This document shows positions 20,972 to 46,274 of a stretch of 64,000 bases of DNA, one piece after another. Within the stretch, counting starts at the first letter, position 1; every line of letters begins with the position of its first letter. The notes beneath the pieces were generated by a model, which saw nothing but the letters and a program-made list of their open reading frames with translations, did no database searches and was not told the origin of the DNA. The translations under genes were made by a program, and so were the position numbers. This DNA is from Paenibacillus sp. G2S3 (GTDB lineage Bacteria > Bacillota > Bacilli > Paenibacillales > Paenibacillaceae): assembly GCF_030123105.1 (NCBI RefSeq), contig NZ_CP126095.1, forward strand, positions 3,286,001 through 3,350,000, written 5' to 3'.

Positions 20972-20994
20972 TCGCACTTAGGTAAACAACCGAT

Positions 20995-21053
20995 GCCCTT
21001 GCTCCTTCTTCTCCTGTAAATTGGATTTCTACAGAAGGATGGGTAGCAGGGGC
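20995..21053 (+). other. Intercistronic hairpin between lipoprotein and permease genes
   Basis: GCCCTTGCT pairs with AGCAGGGGC (one G-T pair), and an inner stem (CTGTA/TACAG with CCTT/AAGG) extends it. It sits 24 bases after the lipoprotein stop and only a short weak T stretch follows. Such structures often raise the level of the binding protein over its permeases by protecting the upstream mRNA. Confidence 0.5.
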
Positions 21054-21081
21054 TTTCATCTCTAATATATAAGACAGAAGG

Positions 21082-22871: not shown

Positions 22872-25940
<3,069 letters not shown>

Positions 25941-25955: not shown

Positions 25956-25986
25956 GGTTGCCTCGATTGTAAGGTTGAGGCAACCG
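25956..25986 (+). terminator. Weak hairpin after the beta-galactosidase gene
   Basis: CGGTTGCCTC pairs with GAGGCAACCG over an 11-12-base loop. No T tract follows (AATCCTATTTG), so termination is probably partial, or the hairpin mainly stabilises the upstream message. Confidence 0.5.
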
Positions 25987-26152: not shown

Positions 26153-29100
26153 ATGATTACTACAGTTAAACGAAGGTTATTTATTTCTTTTCTTTCTATT
26201 TCTTTGATTGTACCTATGTTTTTGGGTCTACCAGGTCAGAAAGTAAGTGCAGCGAATACTACGATTAAATTAGATCCGAACCATATGCAGCAATCTTGGG
26301 AAGGATGGGGAACCTCTCTTGCCTGGTTCGGTAATATAACTGGCGGTTGGAACGATAAAGTCAAAAGTGCAATGGCTGATGCTCTATATTCTCCAGATGG
26401 ATTGAACTTTAATATTGCTAGATATAATATAGGCGGCGGAGAGAATCCTGCTTACAATACGATGCGCCAAGGAGGGGAAGTACCTGGATTCTCGCCATCA
26501 CCTGGAGTATTCGATTGGACGCAAGATGCTAATCAGCGCTGGTGGCTGGAGGCAGCTAAAGCTAGAGGCGCCAATATTCTAGAAGCGTTCTCAAATTCTG
26601 CGCCGTATTATATGACGGTCAGTGGAAGTACGACTGGTCACTGGGAGTCGTGGAAAGACAATTTAAAACCGGATGAGTACGAAAATTTCGCTAACTATTT
26701 GACAGAAGTGGTTAAGCATTTTAAAGAAGAATGGAACATCGATTTCAATTATCTTTCACCAGTAAATGAACCTAGTACGGATTACTGGGGATTTAGTGGG
26801 GGACAGGAAGGTTCTCACTGGGATGTTGGTTCACAGATGAAGATCATTAATACAACACGGGCCAAATTGGATGCAGCGGGACTAAATTCGGTAGAAATTG
26901 CTGCTATGGATGAATCTATTCTGGACACCTTTGTTAGTAACTGGAATTCTTATGATGAGACAACTAAAGCTAACATAGGTAAAATGAATACCCACTCTTA
27001 CGGTGGGTCAAAGCGGGCTGAGATCAGAGATGCGGCCAAAGAAGCTGGGAAGACGTTATGGATGTCTGAAGTAGACTTAGGTCCTTCTGGGATTGCGCAT
27101 GATCACGATGATTTCGAGCCAGCACTAGCATTGGCAGAAAGAATTATGACAGACATTACTTGGTTAGAGCCTAAAGCTTGGGTTACTTGGCAAGCGTTTG
27201 AAAGCGAGAAGAACATGCAGAAGGATAAGGAGAACATGAACTGGGGTCTCCTTCACGCGGATTTCGACACGCAAGAATGGTGGTATACGAAGAAGTATTA
27301 CGCCATGCAGCAATTTAGCAAATTTATTCCTCAGGGCGCAAGCTTCATTGGGGATAACGATGATAACACTTTAGCTGCTTATGATCCTACAACTAATAAA
27401 ATTCATATTGTATATAGAAATCCTAATGTAACCAGTCAAAATATATCTTTAGATTTGTCCCAGTTTGATACAGTTACTGGGGATGCAACACCTTATGTTT
27501 CTTCCGCGACTGAGAATGTCGTACAGAAGGGCAAAATTCCTGTTCTGGATAAAACGTTGCAAGCGACGGTTGGAGCGAAGTCCATTACAACCTTCGTAAT
27601 TGATGGAGCTTCCTTTACAAGCAACTCACTTATTCCTCAGAGTGATATGACGGTAACAGCAAGTAGCGCTCAATCTGGTGAAGAAGCAGAAAGAACACTG
27701 GACGGTAATAACTGGACGAATTGGCACACTTCATGGGAACCTTATGATGCGGGGCCGCATTCGATTACCTATGACCTTGGAGCCCACTATGATGATGTCA
27801 ACAAGCTCAGCTATTTGCCACGGCAAGATAAAGATTGGAACGGAATCATAACGAAGTTTACCATCGAAGTCAGCTCGGATGGCAAGGTGTTCACACCGGT
27901 TGCACAAGGAACCTGGAAGAACGACAGATCTGAAAAAACCGCAACATTCTCTTCGCATGCTGCGAGATATGTACGGTTAAAGATCGACGAAGCGAATGAT
28001 TCAGGAACACAGTATGCATCGGCCGCCGAGATAAATATCATGAGAAAGTCTAATTTCACGGTAGATTCGACTTATCTCAGTAATGCAATTTCTAGAGCAG
28101 AGGACTATATTACTGCTAACAACGGGAATTCGAACGTATCGTATTTGCAAGATTTGGTAAATGAAGCCAAAGTAATACAAGCAAACACTTTAGCAACACA
28201 GGAAGATATCACACAAATTATCAATAAGCTGAACGTTGAATATAGCGTTCTAGACCAAGGACTTATCCCACAAAGCCAAATGACCGCAACGTCTGACAAT
28301 TCCGCTTCTGAAGATGGACCGGGAAAAACAATTGATGGAGATAGCGGAACCAAATGGCATACAGCGTATAACAACGAATATTCAACACTTCCGCATCACA
28401 TTACTTTAAATCTCGGCAAAGCATATAACGGGATCTATATGTTGAAATATTTGCCGCGACAAGATGTGGACTGGAATGGTGTGATCACCAAGTTCGAGGT
28501 TTCCGTTAGTACCAACGGTACTGACTTTACCAAAGTTGCAGAAGGAACATGGGCTGCAGACAAAACGGAAAAAACAGCAACCTTTAATGCAAAGGGCGCT
28601 GAATATGTAAGATTTACTGCACTTGAATCGAGAAGTGATGCAGGCAAACAATATGCTTCAGCTGCAGAGATAAATATTCTAAACAAGTCTGGTTATAAAG
28701 TGGATTTCACCAACCTAGACAGCGCAATTCAAGCTGCAGAGAAATTCAAAACAGATTCTGCGAAAGATTCGTCTTACTTCAAGAATTTGGACGCGTTCCT
28801 TAGTCAAGCAGGTACTTTGGTGAAGAGCGCATCAGCGACGCAAGAAGAAATCGTAAAAATGGCAGGCCGTATTTTAGCTGAAATAACCAATATTCAAAAC
28901 AGTGATCCGAATATTAAAGGAATCAGCCTCTTCTATGCACCTGAGGCCTATAGCTCTAATCCATCCAGTCTCATGCTGGACAACAACACTTCTACCTTCT
29001 ACGAAACTAACTGGGATAAGAACGGACGGAAATACAAATCTGGTGATTATATCGTTATAGATCTGGGAGAGAGCGTTCCTGACATTGGAAAGGTGCTTGT

Positions 29101-32100
29101 TACACCAAGACAAGACAAGGCGAATGGCCGCATCAAACAATTCAAAATCTATTACAGCGATGTGAACCTGGAAAAATCACCTTCTGACGGTACGCAAGCT
29201 TATTTGGACGAGAATTTCAAATTAGCAGCAAATGGCTCTTTTAGTGACAATAGCACGAGTGTACAATCCGCGACGTTCAAATCCGTTAAAGCTCGGTATG
29301 TCGCAATTCAGGCTATTACCACTGGCGGTGACGGTAACACACTCAGCACAGCAGAAATTGCAGTTAGTCAGAAACAAACAGCGACTTTTGATACAAGTAA
29401 ACTACAAACAGCAATCGATCAATTGCGTACTTTGTCATACATTAGTCCGAAAGTGGATGCTGCGATAGAAAAGCAAATCACAACGATCGGTAATCTTGTT
29501 GATTTAACCGAAGAAAGTATTTCGTATTACACGAATCATTTAAATGATTTATACAACCTCTATTTAACTGTAAATAACAAGAGCTCCATTAAGAGCGGTG
29601 AAGTATGGTTAGATACGGAAGGCGTGCCGATTCAAGCACATGGCGGAGGTATTCTGTATAACGAGAAGAACAAAACGTATTACTGGTACGGTGAAGACAA
29701 GACGGAAGGTTATCTTCCTACTGGAGTTCACGCATATTCGTCCAAAGATTTGTACAATTGGCAAAATGAAGGCATCGTATTGCCCGTCTTCAATAACCCT
29801 CAACTTGGCGAAGATGTAGTGCCGGCTGGAAACGACCTGCCATTATATCTGGATGAAAATTCTGAAACGTACAAGAATAGCGGGGTTCCATACGATCCTG
29901 ATAGAAAAGTAATAATTACAAGTAAAGATGAAGACTACACGGGTAACATGAAATCACCGAACAATACACTCAGTAAACACAATTCACCGGATCGTATCGA
30001 AGAGCTTAATAAGCTGTATGCGAATTATACGAATGAAGAGAAGCAAAAGATGTATAAGGATTTCAACTGGGATAAAGTTGTCGAGCGTCCTAAAGTTGTC
30101 TACAACAAGAAGAACGACACTTATGTAATGTGGTGGCATCAGGATGGACCGATAGCAGGCGAATATTGGACTGCAGAAGGCGGTGTAGCAGTCAGCGATT
30201 CGCCGACTGGACCATTCAAATATCTCGGCACATCCCGATTGCCAAATGTAGGTGATAAAGATGGCAATGATGGAATGCTCCGTGATATGACCTTGTATGT
30301 CGATGACGATGGCAATGAAGCGACGGATGACAAAGCCTACTTGGTTTATTCTTCCGAAGAAAATGTAACGACCGTGATCATGATGTTGAATGATGATTAC
30401 ACAGGTCCAGCTCAGAATGTTAAGGGTCAAACCTTAGACGGCATTCACTATAAGAGAGTATTTAGCTACAAGAGAGAAGCACCAGCGATTTTCAAGCAAG
30501 ACGGAGCCTATTATATGATTTCGTCCGGCTTGTCCGGTTGGAATCCTAACCGCGCCGAATACCACGTCTCCACTCAAGGAATGTTTGGACCATGGGAATT
30601 TAAAGGCGATCCTATGGTTAACGACTATGAAGGAACCACCTTTAGAAGCCAAAGCACATTTGTTCTACCTTATCGGGATGGTAATGGCACTCTCGTACCG
30701 AATAAATTTATCTTTATGGCCGATCGTTGGTACCCGAATAATTTGAGTGATTCCAGATATGTTTGGCTTCCGATTGAACTCGATAACGAGAACCGTCGAA
30801 TAGCGGTAAGTTGGCATGACGAGTGGGATACTTCTCTATTCAAGACTGGTACGACTATTAACTTCAATAGCAATGGAGGAAGTTCGATTTCTTCCTTGTA
30901 TGGGGTTGAAGTCGGTACAAAAATTACTGCGCCTACAGAACCGACTCGGGCAGGATTTACATTTGTGAATTGGTATAAAGACGAAGCATTGACTACGCTA
31001 TGGGATTTCTCTCTTGATACGGTTCCAGCAAATGATATTACACTCTATGCGAAGTGGGAGCCTATAGCTGCACCGGTAATTACAAATATCATGCCAGTGA
31101 ACGTAGCTACGTTGATCGGGACCCCACCTGTATTGCCTTCGGTTGTAACAGCTGTATACAGTGATGGAACAACCCAAATCAAATCAGTAGTATGGGACGC
31201 GATAGATCCTTCACTATATGCTGAAGCAGGCAGCTTTAGCGTAAATGGAGCGGTTGATGGTGCTTCTATTCCAGCTGTTGCGAATGTAATCGTAAGTGAG
31301 GATGTTTATAGAGCACAACTTGCAGCGCGTATCGCAGATGCTCAAGCCATTTATGATTTAGCAGTGGAAGGAATGGACGTCGGTCAGTATCCGATAGGAG
31401 CGAAACAGAAATTATTGGATTCGATCACGGAAGCACAGCAAGTGCTTGACAATGATTCAGCTACCCAGACGGAGTTAGAACAAGCAACAATGGATATAAA
31501 TTCAGCACTTCAAGTATTCGAGGCCTCCAAGAATCAACATGTAAAAGTACAATCCATCTCGATAACGAGCGCATCGTCGTCCATTGAAGTGAAGAAAGGA
31601 GCTTTGCAGTTACAAGCGGAAGTCCAACCGGCTAATGCTACGAACAAAACCGTTACGTGGGCGGTCTATGAAGCGGATGGAATAACTGTAGCGGATAAAG
31701 CGATCATTAATACAAATGGTTTGTTGACGGCTGCGAAGAACGGCATTGTGAAAGTCGTTGCTACATCCGTTGATAACACCACAGTTTACGGGATAAAAGA
31801 GATTACGATAAGCGGTCAAAACGACAGCCCAGAGCCTACTTCAAGCCCAGGAACAAATCCTGAAACAAATCCAGGCAACCCAACGACACCAACGAGTCCT
31901 ACACCTACGACCCCTCCTACAAAAGAAGATCCGCATCGCTATGTTCCAACAGGAAAAGAACTAAAAAATGAAACAGTACAGAATGGATTAACGAGCCTTT
32001 CGATAAACATTGATCGGGAAGGTTTAGAGAAGAAGCTAGAAGCACTTTACAAAACAAAGGAAAGTCCTACTCTTGACATCGAGATTTCAGGAGCGAATGC

Positions 32101-33166
32101 ATGGAATGCAGTACATCTGCCGCTTGATGTTTTGTACAACAGCATGAAAGCGAATAAGGAAACGATCATAACTCTAAGAAGCCATTTAGGAAGTTATGAA
32201 CTTCCGCTTTCTATTCTGAATCGTGAAGAGTTTGAAAAGGCCGCTAAAGTTGAGGGTGCAACCTTAATCATTCGAATCGATAATGTGACATCAGAGCAAG
32301 ATAAGAAGTTTGAACAATCCAAGTTAGAACAAGGGTTGAAGCGGGCAAGTGACATCGTCACATTCAAAGTCATTCTTAAATCGAAGGATAAAGAAGAGGA
32401 AATTCAAAACTTTGGGAATTCCTTTGTGACACGCGTGATGTATTTGGATGCTGCCATTCAAGATCCTTCGACTGCGACCGCTGTTATATTCGATCCAGCT
32501 ACAGGTCAAATGCGCTTCGTGCCATCGGTGTTCACAGTGAAGAACGGCAAGACTGAAGTCACAATATTCGGTCAAGCAAATGGCCTATACGCAATCGTAC
32601 AGAACAAGAAAACATTCGATGACATGATTGGACATTGGGCGCAAAAGGATGTTGAGACCTTAGCCTCTAAACTGATCATTAACGGAATGACGGATCAGAC
32701 ATTTGCTCCAGCGAGCCAAGTCACACGTGCTCAATTCGCGGCATTACTGGTCAGAGCGCTGGGGTTATCGACAGAGTCATTATCGAATGTATTTGCAGAT
32801 GTTAGTGCCACTGCGTGGTATGCGCAGGACGTGAACACAGCTGCGCAACTTGGTTTGGTTCAAGGTACAGGCGAAGGGAAATTCAGCCCGGATACAATGA
32901 TTACAAGAGAGCAAATGATCGTCATGATCATGAAAGCTGTTCATCTCGTTCAAGGTGATCTTGGTACGGAAGCTCAAATAAGCACTCCTTTTGCCGATCA
33001 AGACCGTATCTCTGATTATGCAAGTCATGCGGTAACAGAAGCAGCAAGCAAAGGATTAATCAAAGGAAAAACAGAAACAACTTTTGCTCCTCAAGATGCA
33101 GCTACACGTGCTGAAGCAGCGGTGATGATCAAACAAGTGTTACAATACTTGAAGTTTATGAACTAG
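26153..33166 (+). CDS. SLH-anchored giant enzyme: GH30 galactanase-like + GH43 exo-beta-1,3-galactanase-like
   Basis: The 2337-residue secreted protein shows, in order: signal peptide (cut near VSA-A, about 33); GH30 barrel (about 35-480) with acid/base E206 in PVNEP and nucleophile E306 in WMSEVD; three F5/8C domains (about 490-632, 702-846, 920-1076) with helical spacers; a GH43 propeller (about 1144-1565) whose first blade carries QAHGGGILY in place of the usual PDP motif, as in exo-beta-1,3-galactanases; an Flg_new repeat (about 1568-1638); a Big_4-like Ig domain; FIVAR (about 1718-1793); Big_2 (about 1797-1889); a Pro/Thr linker; a conserved module of about 220 residues; and three SLH repeats (about 2152-2337). 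GH30 subfamily 5 and GH43 subfamily 24 both attack type II arabinogalactan. SLH repeats tie it to the cell wall. Confidence 0.88.
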   Translation: MITTVKRRLFISFLSISLIVPMFLGLPGQKVSAANTTIKLDPNHMQQSWEGWGTSLAWFGNITGGWNDKVKSAMADALYSPDGLNFNIARYNIGGGENPAYNTMRQGGEVPGFSPSPGVFDWTQDANQRWWLEAAKARGANILEAFSNSAPYYMTVSGSTTGHWESWKDNLKPDEYENFANYLTEVVKHFKEEWNIDFNYLSPVNEPSTDYWGFSGGQEGSHWDVGSQMKIINTTRAKLDAAGLNSVEIAAMDESILDTFVSNWNSYDETTKANIGKMNTHSYGGSKRAEIRDAAKEAGKTLWMSEVDLGPSGIAHDHDDFEPALALAERIMTDITWLEPKAWVTWQAFESEKNMQKDKENMNWGLLHADFDTQEWWYTKKYYAMQQFSKFIPQGASFIGDNDDNTLAAYDPTTNKIHIVYRNPNVTSQNISLDLSQFDTVTGDATPYVSSATENVVQKGKIPVLDKTLQATVGAKSITTFVIDGASFTSNSLIPQSDMTVTASSAQSGEEAERTLDGNNWTNWHTSWEPYDAGPHSITYDLGAHYDDVNKLSYLPRQDKDWNGIITKFTIEVSSDGKVFTPVAQGTWKNDRSEKTATFSSHAARYVRLKIDEANDSGTQYASAAEINIMRKSNFTVDSTYLSNAISRAEDYITANNGNSNVSYLQDLVNEAKVIQANTLATQEDITQIINKLNVEYSVLDQGLIPQSQMTATSDNSASEDGPGKTIDGDSGTKWHTAYNNEYSTLPHHITLNLGKAYNGIYMLKYLPRQDVDWNGVITKFEVSVSTNGTDFTKVAEGTWAADKTEKTATFNAKGAEYVRFTALESRSDAGKQYASAAEINILNKSGYKVDFTNLDSAIQAAEKFKTDSAKDSSYFKNLDAFLSQAGTLVKSASATQEEIVKMAGRILAEITNIQNSDPNIKGISLFYAPEAYSSNPSSLMLDNNTSTFYETNWDKNGRKYKSGDYIVIDLGESVPDIGKVLVTPRQDKANGRIKQFKIYYSDVNLEKSPSDGTQAYLDENFKLAANGSFSDNSTSVQSATFKSVKARYVAIQAITTGGDGNTLSTAEIAVSQKQTATFDTSKLQTAIDQLRTLSYISPKVDAAIEKQITTIGNLVDLTEESISYYTNHLNDLYNLYLTVNNKSSIKSGEVWLDTEGVPIQAHGGGILYNEKNKTYYWYGEDKTEGYLPTGVHAYSSKDLYNWQNEGIVLPVFNNPQLGEDVVPAGNDLPLYLDENSETYKNSGVPYDPDRKVIITSKDEDYTGNMKSPNNTLSKHNSPDRIEELNKLYANYTNEEKQKMYKDFNWDKVVERPKVVYNKKNDTYVMWWHQDGPIAGEYWTAEGGVAVSDSPTGPFKYLGTSRLPNVGDKDGNDGMLRDMTLYVDDDGNEATDDKAYLVYSSEENVTTVIMMLNDDYTGPAQNVKGQTLDGIHYKRVFSYKREAPAIFKQDGAYYMISSGLSGWNPNRAEYHVSTQGMFGPWEFKGDPMVNDYEGTTFRSQSTFVLPYRDGNGTLVPNKFIFMADRWYPNNLSDSRYVWLPIELDNENRRIAVSWHDEWDTSLFKTGTTINFNSNGGSSISSLYGVEVGTKITAPTEPTRAGFTFVNWYKDEALTTLWDFSLDTVPANDITLYAKWEPIAAPVITNIMPVNVATLIGTPPVLPSVVTAVYSDGTTQIKSVVWDAIDPSLYAEAGSFSVNGAVDGASIPAVANVIVSEDVYRAQLAARIADAQAIYDLAVEGMDVGQYPIGAKQKLLDSITEAQQVLDNDSATQTELEQATMDINSALQVFEASKNQHVKVQSISITSASSSIEVKKGALQLQAEVQPANATNKTVTWAVYEADGITVADKAIINTNGLLTAAKNGIVKVVATSVDNTTVYGIKEITISGQNDSPEPTSSPGTNPETNPGNPTTPTSPTPTTPPTKEDPHRYVPTGKELKNETVQNGLTSLSINIDREGLEKKLEALYKTKESPTLDIEISGANAWNAVHLPLDVLYNSMKANKETIITLRSHLGSYELPLSILNREEFEKAAKVEGATLIIRIDNVTSEQDKKFEQSKLEQGLKRASDIVTFKVILKSKDKEEEIQNFGNSFVTRVMYLDAAIQDPSTATAVIFDPATGQMRFVPSVFTVKNGKTEVTIFGQANGLYAIVQNKKTFDDMIGHWAQKDVETLASKLIINGMTDQTFAPASQVTRAQFAALLVRALGLSTESLSNVFADVSATAWYAQDVNTAAQLGLVQGTGEGKFSPDTMITREQMIVMIMKAVHLVQGDLGTEAQISTPFADQDRISDYASHAVTEAASKGLIKGKTETTFAPQDAATRAEAAVMIKQVLQYLKFMN
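32201..33166 (+). repeat. Direct repeat copy 1: shared pre-SLH and SLH coding region
   Basis: This stretch aligns without gaps to 45234-46199, exactly 13,033 bases away. The core (about 32461-32750) differs at only about ten positions, while flanking parts are more diverged. It encodes the end of the pre-SLH module and the three SLH repeats. Confidence 0.85.
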
Positions 33167-33183
33167 ATAAAAAGTCAAAAAAA

Positions 33184-33219
33184 TTGTGCTCGGCTCACTG
33201 AAATGTGAACCGAGCACAA
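33184..33219. other. Intercistronic hairpin between the two giant genes
   Basis: TTGTGCTCGG pairs with CCGAGCACAA, extended by CTCAC/GTGAA-type inner pairs. On the plus strand no T tract follows; on the minus strand TTTTTTTGAC does. It is thus a poor terminator for the giant genes but a good one for antisense transcripts. The next start codon is 33 bases further on. Confidence 0.65.
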
Positions 33220-33251
33220 TGATTATCAACTAGTTATATAAGGAGGAGTGA

Positions 33252-36200
33252 ATGATCTTGTTCAAAATCAAATCTTTAGCTAAACGTTTGACAGTGAGTG
33301 CTTTATCATTGAGCTTAATTATTCAGCATCCTATATCTGTCCCCATAGCTAAAGCAGAACCTGTAAGCGCAATCACTGGGATGTCCGATGCTCCGGAACA
33401 TAAATTATCTCTATGGTACCGACAACCGGCGATAAGTTGGGAAACAGATGCGCTTCCAATTGGCAATGGTCTTATGGGTGGAATGGTCTTTGGTGGCGTC
33501 GAGCAAGAACGCATTCAATTAAATGAAAAAACGTTGTGGTCAGGCGGCCCAGGTTCTTCTTTTGTATACACTTGGCCTTCCACGGATGAACCAACGACTT
33601 CTAACCCGTATACATTCGGTAATCGTGAGGATGGTGCAGATCATTTAGAGAATGTCCGAGCTAAACTCCGCGAGGGGGATATCCAAGGTGCTCATAAAGA
33701 AGCAAATGACAATCTTACAGGCTTGAATGAAGGATTAGGAAGTTATCAAACGTTTGGAGACTTGTACCTAGACTTTGAGAAGTCATCGGGCAAAACAGAG
33801 AATTATCGCCGGGAGCTTGATCTTGAAGACGCGATATCTCGAGTTAAATACACGCTGGAGGGAGTAGAGTATACACGAGAATATTTTATTAGCTACCCAG
33901 ATAAAGTAATGGTTACGCGTCTGACAGCCAATCAGCCGGGCAAGCTCTCCCTGGATGTACGTCCGACGAGTGCTCAGGGAGGAGTCGTTACGGCGAGCGG
34001 TAACAACATTAATATTAGGGGTAATGTAGTTGACAACAATATGCTATATGAAGGGAATTTCCGTGTTCTCCATCAAGGTGGGAGTATAACGACAGGTAAT
34101 GGAAAGATCCATGCAGCGAATGTAGATTCGCTAACCATTCTTACGTCATTAGGCACCAACTATGCTAATAGCTATCCTAATTATAGAGGTACTGATCCGC
34201 ATAATGAGGAAGTGGCGATATTGGATGCCGCTGAGAGTAAATCTTACGAAACACTACTTGAGAACCATAAGAAAGATTATAAGTCTTTGTTTGATCGCGT
34301 GAAATTAGATTTGGCCGAGTCCAAGCCTACGATTCCGACAAACGAGCTCTTAGCCACCTATGCAGGCGCGAAAAGTAAAGCGCTTGAGGTTTTATTTTAT
34401 CAATATGGCCGATATTTATTGATTTCATCTTCTCGTGCCGGATCACTACCGGCCAACCTACAAGGCGTGTGGAATAATTCTAATAGAGCACCTTGGAGCA
34501 GCGATCATCACTTTAATATCAATATTCAAATGAACTATTGGCCAGCGATGGTAACGAATCTCCAAGAGACGATGACACCCCTGATCGATTACATAGATTC
34601 ACTGCGTACTCCAGGGCGTATTTCTTCCGAAAAATACTATGGCATTACTAATGCATGGTCAATTGGAGTGGCGAACAATCCATTCGGATATACTGCGCCG
34701 GGATGGGATTTTGATTGGGGCTGGTCACCAGCATCCAATGCTTTTATCTCGAATAACATTTGGGAGAGTTATAAATTTTCCGGAGATATCGATCTACTAA
34801 AGTCACGTGTTTATCCAATTCTAAAGGAAACAGCACAATTTTGGACTAAGTTTTTAGTAGAAGACTCAGATGGAACTTTGGTATCAACACCTTGTTATTC
34901 TCCAGAACAAGGTACGATCAGTGCAGGATGTGCGTATGACCAGCAGCTTGTACAAGATTTATTTACTAATTATTTGGAGGCAAGTACAACATTAGGTGTC
35001 GATTCCGAATTTCGTGAGGAAGTCCAGAGTAAATTAAATCGGGTGTCTCCAATCAAAATCGGAAAGTACGGTCAAATTCAAGAATGGAAAGAGGACATCG
35101 ACGATCCGAATAACAAACATCGCCATTTGTCCCAACTAGTTGCCTTGTATCCAGGCAAGCAAATTAACAAAAATACACCTGAACTTATGGAAGCTGCCAA
35201 AGTATCATTGCAGCATCGCGGAGACGAGGGTACAGGGTGGAGTAAAGCTAACAAAATTAACATGTGGGCTCGTGCGCAAGACGGTACACATGCACATACG
35301 ATTCTAGAAGGCCAGCTTACTGGAAGTACACTAAATAACTTGTTCGATACACATCCGCCATTCCAAATCGATGGCAACTTCGGTGCTACGTCCGGTATGT
35401 CTGAAATGCTGCTACAAAGTCATTTGGATAATATCGACATTTTGCCAGCGCTCCCTGCTTCATGGCCCAAAGGAAGTTATTCTGGCTTGGTTGCCCGCGG
35501 GGGATTTGAGGTCAGTGTGAATTGGAACAATGCTAGAGCTACAAACATCAGTGTGAAATCTAATAAAGGCAATCGTGCAGTTGTTACTTATCCAAGCATA
35601 GCTGGAGCAATTGTCATGGATCAAGCTGGACAAAGTGTAAAGTATTCGGTAGACAATAACAATCAGATTTCCTTCGACACACAAGTTGGAGGCGTTTACA
35701 CGATTGGTTCGATTCCTCTACAAGATGGACAACTTTACAAAATGACAATGAAAAACAGCGGTCATTTGTTGGACATTGAAGGGGCATCGGAGGAAGAGCA
35801 AGCAGCCGTTGTTCAAATGCCCGAAGTTTCGTTAGTAAGCAGTCAACAGTGGTATATAGAAGGAGCAAGTGATGGCTTCTATAAAATCACCAATAACACA
35901 AGCAAAAAAGTGATTGCTGTTCTAGATTCATCAAAGGACGATGGTGCGAAACTCGTACAGCAAACTTATACTTCAGACAACTCTTATAATGATGAATGGC
36001 TACTCGTAGACAAAGGAAATGGTTATTATCAGTTAGTTAATCGCGGTAGCGATAAAGCCCTTACGGCTTCAAATAACAGCATAGACGCTGGGGCACAGTT
36101 AATCCAATCTTCAATAACAGATTCAAATGAGCAATTATTGAAGATTGATCCTGTGAGAGATCTGTTTGATCAGCAAACGTTCAATCTAACCCTTCAGCAC

Positions 36201-39200
36201 AGCAATTTTCGTATGGACGTGAACGAAGATTCAAAAGCAGATGGGGCTGCAATTATACAATGGTCTGCAGGCTCAGGGTGGAATCAACAATGGATGTTTA
36301 TGAAGACCAAACCAGGTTTTTACAAAATCATCTCGATGAGCAGTTCAAAAGTGTTGGCTGTAGAGAATGCGTCAACAGCGGATGGTGCAGGAATTATTCA
36401 AACTACATACACCGATGATGCGACCTACAATGATGAATGGTCCGTCGTAGATGTAGGTGATGGCCACTATCAATTGAAAAATCGGGCTAGTGGAAAAGTG
36501 ATTGAAATACCCGATAACAGTTTATCAAGCGGCGAACAATTCGTACAAAACAAAGCTGGTACCGGTAGTAACCAGAAGTTTGAATTCTCGTTAGATAGAA
36601 CCGTAAACGACAATGCAACCGGATCAGGAAGTGATCAGTTTGTATACAGTTCAGGTTGGGACTATAGCTCTTCCGAAGCTGGGGCATTCAGTCGTGACAA
36701 CCACTATTCTAACAAATCGGGTTCATACTCGTTTTTGCGTTTTACTGGCTCAAAGGTGCAATTGTATGGAGCTAAAAACGATAATCAGGGGATTGTTGCA
36801 TTTTCCATCGACGATGGTCCTGAACAATTGGTTGATACTTATGCCTCTTCGCGTTTAGATCAACAACTACTTTTTGAAAGCTCGGAGATGTTGAATCAGG
36901 AGCATGTGCTCAAAATCCGGGTGACAGATCAGAAGAATGCCAATGCAAATAACACCTTTATTTCAGTTGACCGTGCGGATATTCAGTCCCGTGTAGTTAA
37001 GGGCGTAGATAAAGCTGAGGATTATTATAAACAGACGAAAGAAACAATTAACGGAGTTAACTATAGTGTAATTACCCTGAATTATAAAGGTGAAGACGCT
37101 GGGGAGGCTGTGAGAGCAGCAATTGAGGCTGCCAAGAAGGTGCAAAAGCCTGTTATTCTAGACTTTCCGACAGAAACCTATCACTTTAAAGCATCAACCG
37201 CGAAACAAGTGCAATATTTCATTTCAAATACATCGACTATTCAACAGACACCAAGCAGCACTCGAAAAGTAGGCCTATTATTCAAAGATATCGAGGATCT
37301 TACCATTCGAGGAAATGGCTCAACCTTGTTGTTCCATGGCGTGATGACGCCCATCGTATTTGACCATGCGACCAATATCAAGGTGAACGGAATAAACATT
37401 GATTTTAACCGTCCTGTAGTATCGGAGATGACCGTTACTGAAGTGGGCAATAACTACATGAAAGCGAGCATACATCCGGACTCATGGTACTCTATTCAAA
37501 ATAATCAATTAGTATGGTTTGGAGAAGAGAATTGGACAGAGAACGGAACTCAAAATGTACGAGTTGTGCAAGAATATAATCCCGTTACAAAACAAACCTG
37601 GAGAGTGGATAATCCACTGGACGGGTCAACAAGCGCGAAGGATCTTGGTAAACGTGAGGTGCAATTCAGTTTTTCTAAAAAACCAAATGTGACGGTAGGA
37701 AATACGTTTCAGTTAAGGGATACAGCTAGAAGAGAACAAGGTGCATTGATTTATCGAAGCAAAGATATTGCGTGGTCGGATGTCAATTTCTATGCTGCTC
37801 CAGGGCTAGGGATTGTCAGCCAATACAGCGAAAATGTAACGCTCGATAAGTTGAGCTTTGCACCTAAGGCAGGCAGTGGACGGACGAACGCATCGATGGC
37901 GGACTTCCTACAAGTTTCAGGAAGCAAGGGCGAAATTCAGGTGTCGAATTCCTATTTTGCCGGAGCACAAGATGACGCGATTAACATTCATGGCACACAT
38001 CTGCAAATTGTACAGATTCCGGCATCGAATCAGGTAAAAGTCCAATTTATGCATCCTGAGAGCTGGGGATTTGATGCATTTGCAGTCGGGGATAGGATTG
38101 AATATATTAACAAATCAACTCTGCTTTCTAAGGAAAGTGCAGTGGTCACTGGCGTGACACGTTTAAATGATACTCAGATTGTTCTTACCTTAGATAAAGC
38201 GGTACCTTCATCGGTAACTGCAAATGAGTATGTGGTGGAAAATGTCACCTGGACGCCGAATGTTACCATTACGAATTCAACATTTGAAACGATTCCAACC
38301 AGAGGCATCCTCGTGACAACGCTTGGTGCTGTTCGTATCGAGAATAACACATTTAATGGCATGCAAATGAGCGCGATCCTGATCACTGATGATGCGAACA
38401 GTTGGTACGAATCTGGAATGGTGAAGGATGTCTTGATCCGCAACAATACGTTTAATAATAACGGGAATGCGGTGATTAGTGTTGAACCGAGCACTTCTCT
38501 GACAAATCCGGATAAGACCGTGCACAGTCATATCGTGATTGATGGCAACCAATTTAATAAGACGGACGGTAACTCTGAGATTTATGCTAAGAGTGTAGAT
38601 GGATTTACGTTTACGAACAATACCGCAAATCAAGGTGGTTTTGCGCTTTCATTTGATGCATCTAAAGCTGTAACCATTGCAGGGAACAGCTTCGCACAAA
38701 GCGATGTTGACAAGAAAATTAACTTTAATCGCATGATCGTGGGCACAGACTCCGTTGAAGCAAGTCAAGGATTTGTTGTCACGAGAACGAATGACTATAC
38801 ACCTACAGTTTCGGATCCAAATGAGATTCCGCAAAGTGAAATGACTGCGACATCAACCAGCAATCACAGCGGAAACGAAGCAAGCAATGTCATTGATGGT
38901 GAACCTTCAACTTATTGGCATTCAGAATGGGATCCTATGGCGGAATTACCGCAGTCGATCACCCTAGATCTTGGAAAGCCGAGAATGGTATCTAAACTAA
39001 AATATTTGCCAAGACAAAATGGGTCACAGAACGGAAATATTACTTCATATGAATTATCAACAAGTTTGGACGGAACAACATTTTCACGGTTTACAAGCGG
39101 AAATTGGAGTGATGACAGCAATGAGAAAATGGCAACATTCGCTCCGGTTACAAGCAGATACCTGAAACTTACCGTTACTGCAGGTCATGGGGGATATGCA

Positions 39201-42200
39201 TCTGTGGCAGAGCTCCATGTTAGCAAAGATGCTAGTGACGTCCGGTATCAGGAGTTGGTTGAGCTTATAACGAATGCGCAAGGCAAGCATGATAGCGCAG
39301 TTGAAGGAAGTAGCATAGGGCATTATCCAGCTGGTTCGAAACAAACGTTACAGACGGCTATTAATTCAGCAAAGCAAGCAATCAACACTAGTTCGATTAC
39401 ATCGCAGCAGTTACAGAAGGCTTTTGATGTCTTGAATACTGCGCTAAAAACCTTTGAATCGCTCAAAATCAATGATTCAAATGGCAAATCTATCACGATC
39501 ACAAGCACAACAAATCGCATTAACGTTAAAGGCGGAAGTCTTCCATTAGGGGTAGTTGTACTCCCGGTTGATCAACCAGTCACATGGAGTGTCTTTGAAG
39601 TGGATGGCACTGCAACAGATAAAGCGATTATCAATCAATCTGGTGTATTGACGGCTGCGAAGGATGGAAATGTAAAAGTCATTGCAACGGCAACGAGAGA
39701 TTCTTCTCTCTTCGGTGAAAAAGTCATTGTCATCACTGGTCAAAATGATGAGAACCCATCAACTGATCCGACGAATCGAGAGGAATTAAATTTCAACACA
39801 GGTTGGTTATTCAAACGTGAGGATGTTAGCGGCGCCCAATCGGCAAGTTTTGATGATAGTGCCTGGGAGGGCGTCAATCTACCTCATAGTGTGCGTCTGG
39901 AGCCGAAGATCAGCGGCGGCGCTAATCAAAGCTATCAAGGCTTTGCAACGTATCGAAGACATTTCACGCTCGACAATTCTTACAGCGGTAAGAAGTTGTT
40001 TATAGAATTCGAAGGTGCGATGATCAACGCTGAAGTGTGGATAAACGGCAATTATCTAGGAGTTCATCACGGAGGATACACCCCTTTTACATTCGACATC
40101 ACGAAATATGTTCTATTGGAGGGGGCAACGAATGTCATCACAGTCAAGCTTGATAACAGAGATGACCCACAAACGCCGCCAGGAAAACCGCAGAGCGGTT
40201 TGGACTTTGAGTATTTCGGTGGACTTTACCGAGATGTTAAACTGCATGTCATGGATAACTTGCACGTCACTGATGCAATATACGCAAATAAGGTGGCGGA
40301 CGGCGGTATCTTTGTTACCTACCCAGAGGTAAGTAAAGAAGAAGCGACAGTGCAAGTGAAGACAAATATCATCAATGAAAACGCGAGTGCTAAGAACACA
40401 AGCGTAAAAACTACGATTGTAGACAGTAACAATCAGGTGGTTGCTACAATGGTGAGTGATCCACAGAAAATAGTCGCGGGAAGCGACTATACATTTGTCC
40501 AATCGACGACGATAACTAAACCACAGCTTTGGCATCCTGACCATCCAAATCTGTATACGGTTTATACAGCTGTGAATGACGGGACTGCGTATGTAGATAG
40601 CTACAAGACCCGTATCGGGATTCGGCACATTCAATTTACACCTGATCAAGGCTTTCTGATTAATGGTGAAAAATTAATGCTAAATGGCGCGAATCGGCAC
40701 CAAGAGTTTTTGTATGTGGGCAATGCAATGCCAAATTCTGGACAGTATCGTGACGCTAAGCAGCTTCGAGAAGGTGGCTTCAATAACGTGCGCACAGGTC
40801 ATTATCCGCAGGATCCAGCGTTCCTCGATGCGGCGGACGAACTTGGATTGACCGTCATCTCCCCAACGCCAGGCTGGCAGTTCTTCGGGGATTCTGTCTT
40901 CCAAGAGCGTTCCTATCAAGCCATTCGAGATATGGTACGCCGTGATCGAAACCATCCGAGTATTATTATGTGGGAATCTAGCTTGAATGAAACGACCTAC
41001 TCGCTGGAGTATGCACAAAATGCTCATAAAGCTACCCACGAGGAATATCCGGGAGATCAGACTTATACGTCTGCAGAATACGGATTCTTTGGAAAAGAAG
41101 TTTATGATGTGAACTACAAAGAATTAGATACAGCATTCAAACCACTCTTTACTAGGGAATGGGGAGACGATTGGTCGGAAAGCGCGACAAGTCCTACAGG
41201 GTATCGTTCGGTTCGTAAAGTGGGAGAAACCGACATGATCAACTCCATCATCATGCGTCAAAAGGCGCTAAATGGTGACGGATACTTTGACTGGGCGGGC
41301 CTCAATGCCAATCCACGCATAGCCGGACATTCGGTTTGGAGCTTTAATGATTACAACCGGGGTATGGATTCTGACCCGGCCTATTCAGGCCTTGTGGATC
41401 TGGATCGTTATCCGAAATTTAATTATTATTTCTTCCAAAGCCAGCGTAATCCTGGTGTGAAGCTAAGTGACGTCGACTCTGGACCGATGGTTTATATAGC
41501 TAATTATTGGACGCCATCTTCGTCAAGAAATGTCACAGTCGCGAGCAATACGGAACAAGTCCAACTTTATTTGAACGATACACTCATCGCTACCCAAAGT
41601 CCTGACAGTGGATTTAAGAATGTAACCCACCCAACCTTTACATTCAACAATGTGTCTTGGGCGGCGGGAACATTGCGGGCTGACGGATTGATTGACGGTG
41701 AGGTCGCGGCATCACATACTGTGAAAACGCCGGGACAGCCGCATCATTTGGCAGTAGAGTACGATACGAAGCGTAAGGAACTCGTTGCAGACGGTTCCGA
41801 CCTGGTGATGGCTTATATTACGGTACGGGATGCTGACAACAACATCGTTCCGACGAATCATATTTCGGTATCCTTAAACTTGAGCGGTCCAGGCGGACTT
41901 ATCGGTAATGGTGTAACACGAACTTTTGCCAATCCGGTTGCAGTAGAAGGTGGCGTCGCAGCCGCGCTCGTGAAATCTTCACTTGTGGAGGGCACTTTGA
42001 AATTATCGGCTTCAGCGAGTGGATTGCTCTCGGGAAGCGCTGAAATCACCACTGTTGCAAGTCAAAGCGTATTCGTTCCTGGTGGAAGTGATGGAGGAGA
42101 CCATTGGTTTGAAGGTGAGAATGTTGCTTTGAATAAACCTGTAACAACAAGTAGCGCGCAAAGCGGTAATCCAGGAACGAATGGTAATGATGGAAACGAG

Positions 42201-45200
42201 ACTACTGGATGGGTAGCTACAAACAGCAACTCAGATCAATGGTGGGAAGCTGATCTAGGTGAAGTCTATAACATTACGGGATCTGAAATCGTTTGGGCGA
42301 GTAGTAGCACCTACAATCAGTATAAAATTGATGTATCCGAAGATCAGGCGAACTGGACGAATATTTTGGATAAAACCCAAAACACGACGACAACGACGCG
42401 GCAAAGGGAGAAGTTGGTTGCTAACGCACGGTATGTACGCGTAACGTTAACGGGTGTACAAAACGGTCAGGCTAGTTTCAATGAGTTAAAAGTGTTTGGA
42501 GTAGCACCGTTTCAAAATCAGGCGACGCAGCACCCAGAGTTGGTGAATGTCGCGTTGAATAAGTCCGTCAGTGCAAGCAGTTTGGTAACTGGCAACGAAG
42601 CTTCCAATGCAAACGACGGAATTAATGCCACATGGTGGGAGGCTAGTAGCAATGCACCTGGATGGTGGCAGGTGGACTTGGGTGCTTCCTACAATCTGAC
42701 AGGCAGCAAAATCCTTTGGGGAAGGGATAACATCTATTACTCCTATAGAATAGAGGTTTCCTCCAACGGTAAAGAATGGTCGCAAGTGGCGGGCCGCTCG
42801 GCTTCTGGTCAAGATATGAAGCCAGACAACTACATGGCAACTGGTGTTAGATATGTACGAGTATTCGTAGATTCTCTTGCAGGAGGCAGTGGTACGGAGA
42901 AGCCAGCGATCAAAGAAATTCAAGTCTACAGCGATCCTAAGAACATTGCGCTTAATAAACCTGCTACCGCAGACAGCTCGCAAAGAAATAACCCTATCTC
43001 GGCAGGGAACGATGGAAATGAAACAACTCGTTGGAGCGCAGACGACGGTAATGTTGGACACTGGTACAAGGTTGACCTTGGGGCGATTTATGACTTATCG
43101 GGTACCCGCGTGAAATGGGAAATGGACAATAAGAATTATGGATATCGAATTGAGGTTTCAGACGATGATGTGAACTGGGCGTCAGTAGCACAAAAGTCAA
43201 GTTCACAGCAAGTGCAGTTCGACTATTTCAATACACACGCAAGATATGTACGAATCCATGTGACGGAGATGTCCGATGGTTGGGCGAGTTTCTGGGAATT
43301 TGAAGTATTTGGCGCGGTTCCGGTTGATACATCGCTGATCCCACAATCGCAAATGACAGCTACAGCAACGAGTGAAGAGACAAGCGGCGAGATTAATGAC
43401 GCTTCGCAAGCCATCGACGGTAATCCGTCGACAATCTGGCACACGAAGTGGGATTTGTCCAATCCACTTCCACAGTCGATCACCCTTAATCTTGGGAATA
43501 CACATGTCATTTCGACATTAAAGTATTTGCCAAGGCAAAATGGGGCACAAAACGGAAATATTACTTCTTATGAGATATTAACAAGTTTGGATGGAGTCAA
43601 CTTTACACCGGCTACAAGCGGAAGCTGGGATAATGACAGCACTGAGAAAGTCGCAGAATTCACTCCGGTCGCTAGTAGATACCTGAGACTTACTGCTATC
43701 GAAGGCCATGGTGGATTGGCTTCAGCGGCAGAGATTAACATCATGAAGAATGAGATGGATGAGGACTATCAAGCTCTTGAAGCTCTCATTACAAGTGTGC
43801 AAAGCAAGCACGATAGTGCTATAGAAGGGAATGAAAATGGTCAATATCCAGAAGGTTCAAAACAAACATTGCAAAAAGCCATTGATCAAGCGAAAAAAGT
43901 ACGCGATAGCTTATCAGTTACGCAGCAGCAATTGCAGCAAGCAGCGAATGACTTAACTGCTGCATTGAAAGTGATGGAGGAGAGTATTAACAATCATGAG
44001 ATGGTTCAATCGATCATGATTACAAGTGAATCATCAGTGATTACGACTAAGAACGGAACTCTCCAATTAGGCGCTGCCGTACTGCCTACCAATGCTAATA
44101 AGTCGGTAACATGGGCTGTGTATGAAGTAGATGGCACAACAGCAACGGACAAAGCGACCATTGATCTATCCGGTTTGCTGACGGCTGTGAAAGATGGAAC
44201 CGTGAAGGTGGTTGCCACAGCAACGGATGGCTCAGGTGTTCATGATGAAATGGATATTAGCATTAGTGGTCAAACGGACATTATCGATCCAGGCACTGAT
44301 CCAGTGCATGTTGGAAAGATACACATCACAAGCTCAGGAAATGTGTCCACGATTACAGCTAAGAATGGAACATTGCAACTAGGCGCTACGGTACTACCTG
44401 CTAATGCTACGAATAAGTCGGTAACATGGGCTGTATACGGAGTAGATGGCATAACAGCAACGGATATCGCAACCATTGATGTATCTGGTTTGCTCACGGC
44501 TGTGAAAGATGGAACTGTGAAAGTGGTAGCTACAGCTGTGGATGGTTCTGGTGTCCAAGGAGACATGGTTATTACCATAAGTGGTCAAACGGACATTATC
44601 GACCCGGGCACTGAAACAGTGTATGTTGGAACGATTGACATCACAAGCGCGGGTAATGTGTCGACGATTACTGTTAAGAACGGCAGCCTCCAATTAAGCG
44701 CAATCGTGCTACCTGAAAATGCTACGAATAAGTCCGTTACATGGTCTTTATTCGAAGCAGATGGTCGAACAGCTACGGATAAAGCGACCATTGATGTTCA
44801 CGGTTTGTTAACGGCTGTGAAGGATGGCATCGTAAAAGTGGTTGTGACTGCAAATGACGGCTCCGCAGTTGTTGGAGAAAAATCCATAACCATTACCGGG
44901 CAAAGCAATCAATCTGGTAATGAAAATGGCAATGGAAACACAACTACGCCGCAAGTCAAAGAAGATCCGAATCGCTATGTACTGAAAGAAACAGAACTTC
45001 GGATCTTAACTCAAGACGGTCAGACGTCGGTGAAGGCGGTCATTGATAGCAAGCGATTGGCACAGAAATTAGCTGATCTCATGGCAGCTAAGGATCGTTC
45101 AGTTCTCCATTTTGAAATTCCAGGAGAGCATGACTTGAACGCTGTAGAGTTCCCTCTTCCAATTCTGTACAACAGTATGAAAGGAAGTAGCGAAACCATC

Positions 45201-46199
45201 TTCACCTTACGAAGTCATTGGGGTTCTTATGAACTTCCGCTTTCCATTCTGAATCGTGAAGAGTTTGAAAAGGCCGCAAAAGTAGAGGGTGCAACCTTAA
45301 TCATTCGAATGGATAATGCGACTTCACAGCACGAACAGAAGTTTGAACAATCCATAGTAGATAAAGGAATGAAGCGAGTAAGTGACATCATCACCTTCAA
45401 AGTCATTCTTAAAACAAATGATAAAGAGGAAGAGATTCAAAGTTTCGGAAATTCATTTGTGACACGCGTCATATATATGGATGGTGCCATTCAAGATCCT
45501 TCGACTGCGACCGCTGTTATATTCGATCCAGCTACGGGTCAAATGCGCTTCGTGCCATCGGTGTTCACAGTGAAGAACGGCAAGACTGAAGTCACAATAT
45601 TTGGTCAAGCAAATGGCATATACGCAATCGTTCAGAACAAGAAAACATTTGATGACATGATTGGACATTGGGCGCAAAAGGATGTTGAGACCTTAGCCTC
45701 TAAACTGATCATTAACGGAATGACGGATCGGACGTTTGCTCCAGCAAGCCAGGTCACACGTGCTCAATTTACGGCACTTCTGGTAAGAGCGCTGGGGTTA
45801 TCGACGGAGTCATTATTGAATGTATTTGCAGATGTTAGTGCCACTGCGTGGTATGCGCAGGATGTGAACACAGCAGCGAAGTTAGGCTTGGTTCAAGGCG
45901 TAGGTGAGAAGAGATTCAGCCCGGATACAATAATTACAAGAGAGCAAATGATCGTCATGATCATGAAAGCTGTTCATCTCGTTCAAGGTGAACAGAGCAC
46001 AGAAGCGCAAGTACGTGCTCCATTTGCTGATCAGAACCTGATCTCAGATTATGCTAGCCAAGCGGTAACAGAAGCAGCAAGTAAAGGATTAATCGAAGGT
46101 AAAACAGAAATAACTTTTGCTCCGCAAGATGCAGCAACACGCGCTGAAGCAGCGGTGATAATCAAACATGTTCTGCAATACTTGAAGTTCATCAATTAA
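33252..46199 (+). CDS. SLH-anchored 4315-residue triple enzyme: GH95 + GH110 + GH2
   Basis: Order of parts: signal peptide (about 1-36); GH95 alpha-L-fucosidase (about 49-817) with N422/N424 in [11 protein letters not shown]552 in SPEQG and D707 in QIDGNFG; two ricin domains (about 823-970, 973-1116); a beta-sandwich of unknown family (about 1123-1245); GH110 beta-helix (about 1263-1847) with D1551 in MADF and D1574/D1575 in [10 protein letters not shown]5/8C (about 1858-1995); FIVAR; Big_2; GH2 (about 2177-2830) with E2580 in SSLNE and E2636 in TREWG, plus an Ig-like tail; four F5/8C domains (about 2957-3500); FIVAR; three Big_2 (about 3584-3883); pre-SLH module; three SLH repeats (about 4130-4315). 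GH95 cuts alpha-1,2-fucose, GH110 alpha-1,3-galactose, this GH2 type probably beta-galactose. AGGAGG lies 5 bases before the ATG. All expected catalytic residues are kept. Confidence 0.88.
44000..44900 (+). repeat. Three tandem Big_2 coding repeats, period about 315 bp
   Basis: Three units encode bacterial Ig-like (Big_2) domains, each with [15 protein letters not shown] and [17 protein letters not shown] strands. The joint GGTCAAACGGACATTATCGA recurs at 44268 and 44583, 315 bases apart. High similarity of the first two joints points to recent tandem duplication. Confidence 0.85.
45234..46199 (+). repeat. Direct repeat copy 2: shared pre-SLH and SLH coding region
   Basis: Partner of 32201-33166 at a constant offset of 13,033 bases with no indel. 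It encodes the C-terminal anchoring region of the 4315-residue enzyme. Recombination between copies would delete the triple enzyme and leave the first giant intact. Confidence 0.85.
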
Positions 46200-46213: not shown

Positions 46214-46251
46214 ACTCGGTTCAAACGGATAGGTTTGAGCCGAGTTTTTTT
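46214..46251 (+). terminator. Rho-independent terminator of the giant-enzyme unit
   Basis: ACTCGGTTCAAAC pairs with GTTTGAGCCGAGT (one G-T pair) across a 6-base loop, followed by a run of T. It lies 14 bases after the stop codon. Confidence 0.92.
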
Positions 46252-46274
46252 GTGCCGTTTGAGCCTGTCCGTAC

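What the first reader, a model, noticed from the sequence alone, without database searches (positions are those of the whole stretch)
33252..46199. One surface-anchored chain carrying GH95, GH110 and GH2: a possible blood-group-B-type glycan dismantler
Seen: three complete catalytic domains in one 4315-residue frame with the expected catalytic residues of each family. Known: GH95 includes alpha-1,2-fucosidases, GH110 are alpha-1,3-galactosidases first described on blood group B, and GH2 includes beta-galactosidases. Inference: the trio matches exactly the three bonds of Gal-alpha-1,3-(Fuc-alpha-1,2)-Gal-beta, so one wall-bound molecule could strip it in sequence. Plant or algal glycans with the same linkages are alternatives. 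I do not know of a described enzyme with this trio.
Basis: partly seen in the sequence, partly recalled or inferred. Interest (0 to 1): 0.92.

Follow-up and report, generated by a model that had tools for sequence, protein, structure and literature searches.

The report
Wall-anchored three-enzyme fucose-galactose glycan stripper
A Paenibacillus-type bacterium encodes one giant surface protein with three sugar-cutting enzyme domains that match the three outer bonds of a blood-group-B-like sugar tip, but its neighbouring genes suggest the tip sits on a galactose-rich polysaccharide, and a relative seems to hold the same enzymes together by plug-and-socket domains instead of in one chain.

Summary
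ORF 33252-46199 (4315 aa) has complete GH95, GH110 and GH2 domains with family catalytic residues, lectin/CBM modules and three SLH anchors. Of 13 FucOB pocket/catalytic residues mapped to the GH95, 11 are identical, including every critical one. The GH110's nearest solved relative is the blood-group-B-specific AgaBb. The GH2 is only family-typed. Chains of 4327, 4336 and 4084 aa exist in three other genomes, under purifying selection.

The blood-group reading is partly supported. The linkage logic is good, but the preceding gene carries endo-beta-1,6- and exo-beta-1,3-galactanase-like domains, found in the same locus in all five other genomes with a GH95-GH110 locus. I favour a beta-1,3/1,6-galactan carrying B-type caps over animal blood-group glycans; the genome does hold a separate GH101/GH20/GH84/GH95 mucin-type locus.

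New: in P. plantarum the chain is split (GH95 | GH110-GH2); both parts and two partner enzymes end in dockerins, beside a cohesin-SLH anchor. One activity set, apparently two co-display modes. No activity or binding was tested.

The parts
33252..46199 (+). 4315-aa trifunctional chain GH95 - RicinB - CBM-like - GH110 - CBM32 - GH2 - CBM32 x4 - FIVAR/Big2 - SLH x3
   Evidence: homologues of 4327, 4336 and 4084 aa
33252..33359 (+). probable signal peptide (residues 1-36), read by eye
   Evidence: sequence; no signal-peptide predictor was run
33240..33246 (+). AAGGAGG ribosome-binding-like site before ATG 33252
33411..35705 (+). GH95 (residues 54-818), alpha-1,2-L-fucosidase-like; W415 H420 N422 N424 W489 E552 H625 W663 H701 D707
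35739..36581 (+). RicinB-type beta-trefoil region (residues about 830-1110)
   Evidence: four RicinB_lectin_2 stretches
36582..37073 (+). module without a Pfam hit (residues 1111-1274), CBM35/CBM6-like in a low-confidence model; also found in neighbouring proteins of related loci
   Evidence: recurrence
37074..38687 (+). GH110 (residues 1275-1812), AgaBb-like alpha-1,3-galactosidase; D1551, D1574, D1575
38847..39215 (+). CBM32 (F5/8 type C), residues 1866-1988
39783..42044 (+). GH2 (residues 2178-2931), beta-galactosidase-like; acid/base E2580, nucleophile E2636 by motif
42177..43751 (+). further CBM32 / NedA-like domains (residues about 2976-3500; four of the five CBM32 stretches of the chain)
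   Evidence: 5 stretches in all; only the best of each family is placed exactly
43752..44891 (+). FIVAR and Big_2 spacer region
44892..45635 (+). conserved region before SLH (residues 3881-4128), no Pfam family; 62-65% identical to a region of the cohesin-SLH anchors of P. plantarum and P. alba
45645..46181 (+). three SLH repeats (wall anchor)
46214..46252 (+). stem-loop and T-run after the stop, intrinsic-terminator-like, read by eye
26153..33166 (+). preceding gene, 2337 aa: GH30 endo-beta-1,6-galactanase-like (33-446) + CBM32s + exo-beta-1,3-galactanase-like (GH43-type) domain (about 1139-1565) + SLH
   Evidence: in the same locus in G120, G007, G211, P. alba, P. plantarum
22872..25940 (+). 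LacZ-type GH2 beta-galactosidase, 1022 aa (NF052611, 1511 bits, cut-off 999)
19661..22832 (+). ABC sugar transporter: solute-binding protein and two permeases
16084..19475 (+). two-component system: AraC-type response regulator and Cache/HAMP histidine kinase

Best explanation
The protein is a secreted, S-layer-anchored enzyme that removes B-type tips, Gal-alpha-1,3-[Fuc-alpha-1,2]-Gal-beta or a close analogue, from a galactose-rich glycan, at the wall of a Paenibacillales bacterium. Inferred order: GH110 removes the alpha-1,3-Gal first, GH95 then removes the exposed alpha-1,2-Fuc, and GH2 removes the terminal beta-Gal. The preceding GH30-GH43 protein would cut the beta-1,6 and beta-1,3 galactan core, the ABC transporter would import the products, LacZ would finish inside, and the two-component system would sense them. 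Shown by computation: domains, residues, anchors, conservation, neighbourhood. Inferred: activities, order, substrate, operon. The carrier I favour is a type-II-arabinogalactan-like beta-1,3/1,6-galactan with fucose and alpha-galactose caps. Co-display of these activities seems to be what is kept: relatives reach it by covalent fusion plus SLH, or by dockerin-bearing separate enzymes beside a cohesin-SLH anchor.
For: Family and residue evidence. PMC10063614 passages list the FucOB residues and say FucOB very poorly hydrolyses the fucose in branched A or B antigens, which puts GH110 first. PMC7232152 passages say the B. bifidum GH110 acts on blood group antigen B. Galactanase-like neighbour: in the same locus in G120, G007, G211, P. 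alba and P. plantarum. The 7 genomes with a GH110 of at least 78% identity are all among the 14 of 392 order genomes with the neighbour's GH43-type domain at 70% identity or more. Related loci add GH29 and GH42. GH95 lies within 1.5 kb of 11 of 23 standalone GH110 places. dN/dS is 0.045-0.278 in the 33 domain comparisons (dS is near or beyond saturation for P. alba). Split chain with dockerins plus cohesin-SLH anchor in P. plantarum.
Against: Nothing was assayed. I saw no arabinofuranosidase, glucuronidase or rhamnosidase among the family-scanned genes of the shared core, as a complete arabinogalactan locus would have (not every ORF of the related loci was scanned); a GH43 at 11939-13435 is separate. 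The GH2 substrate is open. T443 and S444, which touch the galactose in FucOB, are V473 and A474 here. G211 has a different GH95 (34% identical) with the GH110 but no GH2; G215 has the GH110 with no GH95, GH2-trio, LacZ or GH30 marker in the 55 kb examined, its GH30-GH43 protein being on another contig. GH95 is not found within 1.5 kb of 12 of 23 standalone GH110 places, nor of the 5 sister-clade places. PDB GH110 entries 9beu and 9bev are lambda-carrageenan complexes, so GH110 is not blood-group-only. The chain has no NPCBM hit, while AgaBb has a CBM51 that binds B antigen (PMC11858185 passage). The genomes counted are related, so counts are not independent.
Confidence: 0.5

Rival explanations
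1. The substrate is animal glycan: mucin O-glycans or glycoproteins bearing real blood-group-B tips (from animals, or residues in soil).
For: GH110 nearest to AgaBb. GH95 has the critical FucOB residues. The same genome has a separate locus with GH101, GH20, GH31, GH95 and GH84 proteins, each with cohesin and dockerin, and a cohesin-SLH anchor, so animal-type O-glycans are plausibly eaten by this organism.
Against: That mucin-type locus is about 1.16 Mb away from the chain. The chain's own run of genes has beta-1,6- and beta-1,3-galactanase-like domains, and no hexosaminidase, sialidase or GH101 was found by Pfam in window genes 16084-46199. Named relatives are P. plantarum and P. alba, which I recall as soil/plant isolates.
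Confidence: 0.2
2. The substrate is a plant arabinogalactan-protein side chain in which the branched residue is L-arabinofuranose, not galactose: alpha-Gal (or beta-L-Arap) 1,3 and alpha-Fuc 1,2 on Araf. The three enzymes then act on different branches, not one trisaccharide.
For: GH30 and GH43-type galactanase-like neighbour. FucOB's galactose-contacting T443 and S444 are not kept. Such caps on AGPs are recalled, not checked.
Against: No arabinofuranosidase seen in the scanned core. AgaBb-like GH110 favours Gal acceptors by relatedness.
Confidence: 0.2
3. The substrate is another beta-1,3/1,6-galactan, for example snail galactogen with L-galactose tips or a fungal fucogalactan; GH95 then acts on L-Gal or Fuc.
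For: The core enzymes identified address galactose and fucose. GH95 also includes 4ufc, which I recall as an alpha-L-galactosidase.
Against: H420 matches FucOB, whereas 4ufc, 2rdy and 7kmq have Thr there. The polysaccharide structures are recalled only.
Confidence: 0.08

Closest known systems
Bifidobacterium bifidum AgaBb (GH110), AfcA (GH95) and BbgIII (GH2), cell-surface enzymes for mucin/HMO glycans (PMC7232152, passages; the name AgaBb and a PMC11858185 passage)
   Same: Same three families; the GH110 of the window is 38-39% identical to AgaBb in the VIA alignments
   Different: There three separate enzymes in a gut symbiont, AgaBb with a CBM51; here one chain with SLH anchor, after a galactanase-like gene
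FucOB, GH95 alpha-1,2-fucosidase of Akkermansia muciniphila (PMC10063614, passages)
   Same: 11 of 13 pocket and catalytic residues mapped are identical
   Different: FucOB has a three-domain architecture with a GH95 only; T443 and S444 differ here
Cohesin-dockerin enzyme assemblies: C. perfringens pairwise type and the Limousia mucinolysome (PMC12997984, passages)
   Same: P. plantarum enzymes of this locus carry dockerins beside a cohesin-SLH anchor
   Different: The window chain has neither module; its co-display is covalent. The locus is galactan-type, not mucin-type
Surface-expressed multi-modular Paenibacillus chitinase ChiW (PMC5132251, search listing and start of abstract only)
   Same: Paenibacillus cell-surface enzyme with more than one catalytic domain
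   Different: ChiW has two catalytic domains for chitin; here three different families

Membership tests
GH95 | Complete N, catalytic and C domains of the family | tested here: met
   PF14498, PF22124 (profile 1-408/408), PF21307
GH95 | Catalytic N, N, E, D and the fucose-pocket residues reported as critical in FucOB | tested here: met
   W378, H383, N385, N387, E541, H613, W655, H693, D699 and also R612 and W453 identical; T443 and S444 differ
GH95 | alpha-1,2-L-fucosidase activity | not testable with these tools
   no assay
GH110 | GLAA-B barrel II in a beta-helix domain | tested here: met
   PF23764 62.3 bits, cut-off 28; 9 PDB sequences matched, titled GH110 or alpha-1,3-galactosidase
GH110 | Catalytic Asp pair | tested here: met
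   D1574 aligns, through L055, with the Asp that is Asn in 7jwf, titled D344N
GH110 | AgaBb-type requirement for the fucose branch | not tested
   closest to AgaBb by sequence; residues that read the fucose were not available (no AgaBb structure paper among the 10 of 71 papers listed)
GH2 | Sugar-binding, immunoglobulin-like and TIM-barrel domains with two catalytic Glu | tested here: met
   PF02837, PF00703, PF02836 (positions 5-144 of 302 only), PF18565; E2580 and E2636 by motif
GH2 beta-galactosidase | Equivalog assignment to a characterised beta-galactosidase | tested here: inconclusive
   best NCBIfam GalA 368 bits, below its cut-off of 900; the best-scoring PDB names are beta-galactosidases
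SLH-anchored surface protein | SLH repeats | tested here: met
   three SLH
Cohesin-dockerin (cellulosome-type) complex, window chain | Cohesin or dockerin module in the chain | tested here: not met
   the 7 cohesin and 6 dockerin matches of the genome lie at 2.136-2.164 Mb, none in the chain
Cohesin-dockerin (cellulosome-type) complex, P. plantarum locus | Dockerin enzymes and a cohesin anchor in one locus | tested here: met
   4 of 4 enzymes with a dockerin over the cut-off in the genome search, though two were under it in the whole-protein scan; cohesin-SLH 602 aa. Binding not tested
Cohesin-dockerin (cellulosome-type) complex, P. plantarum locus | Cohesin also inside the enzymes themselves (C. 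perfringens pairwise type) | tested here: inconclusive
   the genome search lists cohesin in three of the four enzymes; the scans list none in those scanned, nor does a single-sequence comparison, which also misses known ones

The most novel reading that the evidence does not exclude
The chain is the covalent counterpart of a mini-cellulosome for a non-animal glycan: it takes apart blood-group-B-type tips carried on a beta-1,3/1,6-galactan, so B-like epitopes would be a regular soil or plant polysaccharide feature, and related bacteria switch between fusing these enzymes in one SLH chain and holding them by cohesin-dockerin.
Probability: 0.3. Interest if true: 0.75.

Novelty: new variant of a known kind. 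Interest (0 to 1): 0.58.

Why it matters
A single wall-bound molecule with alpha-1,3-galactosidase-, alpha-1,2-fucosidase- and beta-galactosidase-type domains is a ready reagent for testing ordered cleavage by fused enzymes, and a source of AgaBb-like and FucOB-like domains from Paenibacillus-type bacteria. The split, dockerin-bearing version in P. plantarum gives a natural comparison of covalent and cohesin-dockerin co-display of the same activities. If the substrate is a galactan, it points to B-type structures outside animals.

Tried and rejected
Rejected: chance ORF or pseudogene (dN/dS and catalytic residues). Rejected: the architecture as unique to this genome. Rejected: the window chain as itself part of a cohesin-dockerin complex. 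Considered: GH110 in long proteins elsewhere in the phylum. Of 398 phylum genomes, 3 matched at E<=1e-30: the own genome, one of the same family, and G786, which has three GH110-like proteins of 2281, 2301 and at least 2888 aa (the last runs off the fetched stretch; PF23764 is below its cut-off in all three), with no GH95 or GH2 hit.

Led nowhere: the CBM-like module model (pLDDT 55.8) and the GH110 model (pLDDT 59.8) are weak; from them I use only fold-level resemblance and entry titles. The paper search for AgaBb held 71 papers; of the 10 listed only PMC11858185 (two passages read) concerned the enzyme. Cohesins inside the P. plantarum and P. alba enzymes: listed by the genome search but not by the whole-protein scans nor by phmmer with three anchor cohesins, which also missed a Pfam-called cohesin, so I leave it open. 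Searches in print that answered: Paenibacillus+cohesin+dockerin (46 papers, 10 listed), GH110+GH95 (31 papers, 25 listed), AgaBb, GH110+arabinogalactan (9 papers, all listed). No title or abstract start listed describes a GH95-GH110-GH2 chain. I read listings, and passages of PMC11557425, PMC12997984, PMC10063614, PMC7232152 and PMC11858185 only, so absence from print is not shown.
Full report
WHAT IS THERE. The frame 33252-46199 is open for 4315 residues. Pfam gives, in order: GH95 N, catalytic and C domains; RicinB beta-trefoils; GH110 (GLAA-B barrel II); CBM32; FIVAR; GH2; further CBM32-type domains; Big_2 repeats; three SLH. A module at 1111-1274 has no Pfam hit. A weak model (pLDDT 55.8) resembles CBM35/CBM6 domains, among them that of the exo-beta-1,3-galactanase Pc1,3Gal43A; I treat this as a hint only. 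The gene is the last of a run of same-strand genes: two-component system, ABC transporter, LacZ-type GH2, a 2337-aa SLH protein, then this chain. A stem-loop with a T-run follows the stop. That the run is one operon is inferred.

GH95. From the alignment printed, FucOB residues named in PMC10063614 (passages) were mapped in scripts. W378, H383, N385, N387, W453, E541, R612, H613, W655, H693 and D699 are identical in the window; T443 and S444, near-dispensable in FucOB and touching the galactose, are V473 and A474. So 11 of 13 mapped residues agree, with every one reported as critical; the two exceptions leave the acceptor site open. H383 is informative: 2rdy, 4ufc and 7kmq have Thr at that column, while the window has His420 like FucOB. 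That 4ufc is an alpha-L-galactosidase is recalled. Against over-reading: 7kmq, with Thr, is as I recall active on fucose, so this column alone does not decide specificity.

GH2. Domain content and two Glu motifs are as expected, with the TIM-barrel profile matched only at positions 5-144 of 302.

RELATIVES. Full chains of 4327 aa (G120), 4336 aa (G007) and 4084 aa (P. alba LMG 31323) are 89.7, 84.8 and 76.4% identical to the window chain (Pfam domains of G007 and P. alba, G120 by blastp markers). dN/dS by domain is 0.045-0.278 in the 33 comparisons; dS is 0.94-2.69 for P. alba, so those ratios are rough. In P. plantarum LMG 31461 the chain is split into adjacent GH95 (1437 aa) and GH110-GH2 (3034 aa) genes. 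In G211 a 2703-aa chain has a different GH95 (34% identical) with an 83% identical GH110 and no GH2 marker. In G215 the GH110 stands in a 1061-aa protein with RicinB, the CBM-like module and CBM32, with no other locus enzyme marker in 55 kb. In one search, 78 of 392 order genomes had a GH110 match at E<=1e-60; 7 of these (own genome included) carry this clade at 78% identity or more. I take G208 and G261 in that call as P. alba and P. plantarum from identical contig numbers and places.

CONTEXT. The preceding 2337-aa protein matches a secreted endo-beta-1,6-galactanase (24td, E 8.3e-55) at 33-446 and, at about 1139-1565 in pieces, 6eug (named 'Beta-glucanase', E 5.6e-61 over three stretches), galactan 1,3-beta-galactosidase 7bys (E 6.9e-39) and exo-beta-1,3-galactanase 5flw (E 5.9e-25). 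Pfam calls the GH30 part but no GH43 there; GH43 is my label from the PDB relatives. This protein lies in the same locus in G120, G007, G211, P. alba and P. plantarum, 5 of 5 other genomes with a GH95-GH110 locus: directly next to the chain in G120 and G007, and with one to three genes between in the others. Its GH43-type domain at 70% identity or more is in 14 of 392 order genomes, and the 7 GH110-clade genomes are all among them; in G215 it is on another contig. These genomes are related, so I give no probability. P. alba and G211 loci add GH29 and GH42, and P. plantarum GH29. I saw no enzyme for arabinose, glucuronic acid or rhamnose among the core genes scanned, which argues for a galactose-fucose glycan rather than a fully decorated arabinogalactan; several ORFs of the related loci were not scanned, and a GH38 lies further on in P. 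plantarum.

PAIRING. Standalone GH110 genes (mostly 570-625 aa, two broken or partial) have a GH95 within 1.5 kb at 11 of 23 places examined, and 0 of 5 sister-clade GH110 places do (36 loci examined, 7 of them chain clade, two loci being pieces of one gene). In the window's own genome such a pair sits at 4.986-4.990 Mb beside ABC-transporter-like genes. That GH95 has Thr at the His420 column.

TWO WAYS TO HOLD THE ENZYMES. In P. plantarum the GH30-GH43, GH29, GH95 and GH110-GH2 proteins each end in a dockerin (30.7, 31.8, 28.0 and 26.0 bits in the genome search, cut-off 22.9; alignment). In the whole-protein scan the GH95 and GH110-GH2 dockerins were under the cut-off (22.7 and 19.5), so these two are weaker. 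A 602-aa protein between the first two genes is cohesin + a region 62% identical to the window chain's pre-SLH region + SLH. P. alba has such an anchor and two dockerin enzymes and, beside them, the fused SLH chain. The window chain has neither module. Whether the enzymes themselves also carry cohesins is unclear: one search lists them, searches do not. I read the dockerin and anchor pattern as selection for co-display by either route; binding is not shown.

ANIMAL GLYCANS NOT EXCLUDED. At 2.136-2.164 Mb the same genome has a cohesin-SLH anchor and GH101, GH20, GH31, GH95 and GH84 (NAGidase) proteins, each with cohesin and dockerin by Pfam. GH101 is named endo-alpha-N-acetylgalactosaminidase in Pfam; that it acts on mucin-type O-glycans is recalled. 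PMC12997984 (passages) describes such complexes for mucin in gut bacteria and does not mention Paenibacillus.

VERDICT. Observation confirmed; interpretation partly supported. It is a new variant of a known kind: a multi-catalytic SLH-anchored glycosidase with an unusual trio, likely aimed at B-type tips on a galactan.

Noticed in passing
G000 C1 2136212-2163963 (L114, L115), outside the window: Mucin-type cohesin-dockerin locus in the same genome: a 337-aa cohesin-SLH anchor, and GH101, GH20, GH31, GH95 and GH84 proteins each with cohesin and dockerin, plus a 239-aa protein with cohesin and dockerin matches and transporter-like genes between (by eye).
   Followed up: partly
L066:6451-8259 and L070:13265-15064: Cohesin + conserved region + SLH anchor proteins of about 600 aa in P. 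plantarum and P. alba, next to dockerin-bearing galactanase-like and fucosidase genes.
   Followed up: partly
window 25955-25986 and 33183-33220: Stem-loops of 14 and 16 pairs between the last three genes of the run (terminator-like sites overall were no more than in shuffles); possible mRNA processing or stabilising elements.
   Followed up: no
window 300-2831: AraC-type regulator domains fused to a GH39 domain in one 843-aa frame.
   Followed up: no
L089/L090, G211 C1 4900295-4908406 (minus strand): Chain with the GH110 and lectin parts kept but a different GH95 (34% identical) and no GH2 marker: module exchange.
   Followed up: partly
G786 (L101, L102, L103): Three GH110-like proteins of 2281, 2301 and at least 2888 aa with NPCBM and cadherin-like modules in a distant member of the phylum.
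   Followed up: partly
L046 (G112 C28 12467-13417): GH110 remnant with two in-frame stops.
   Followed up: no
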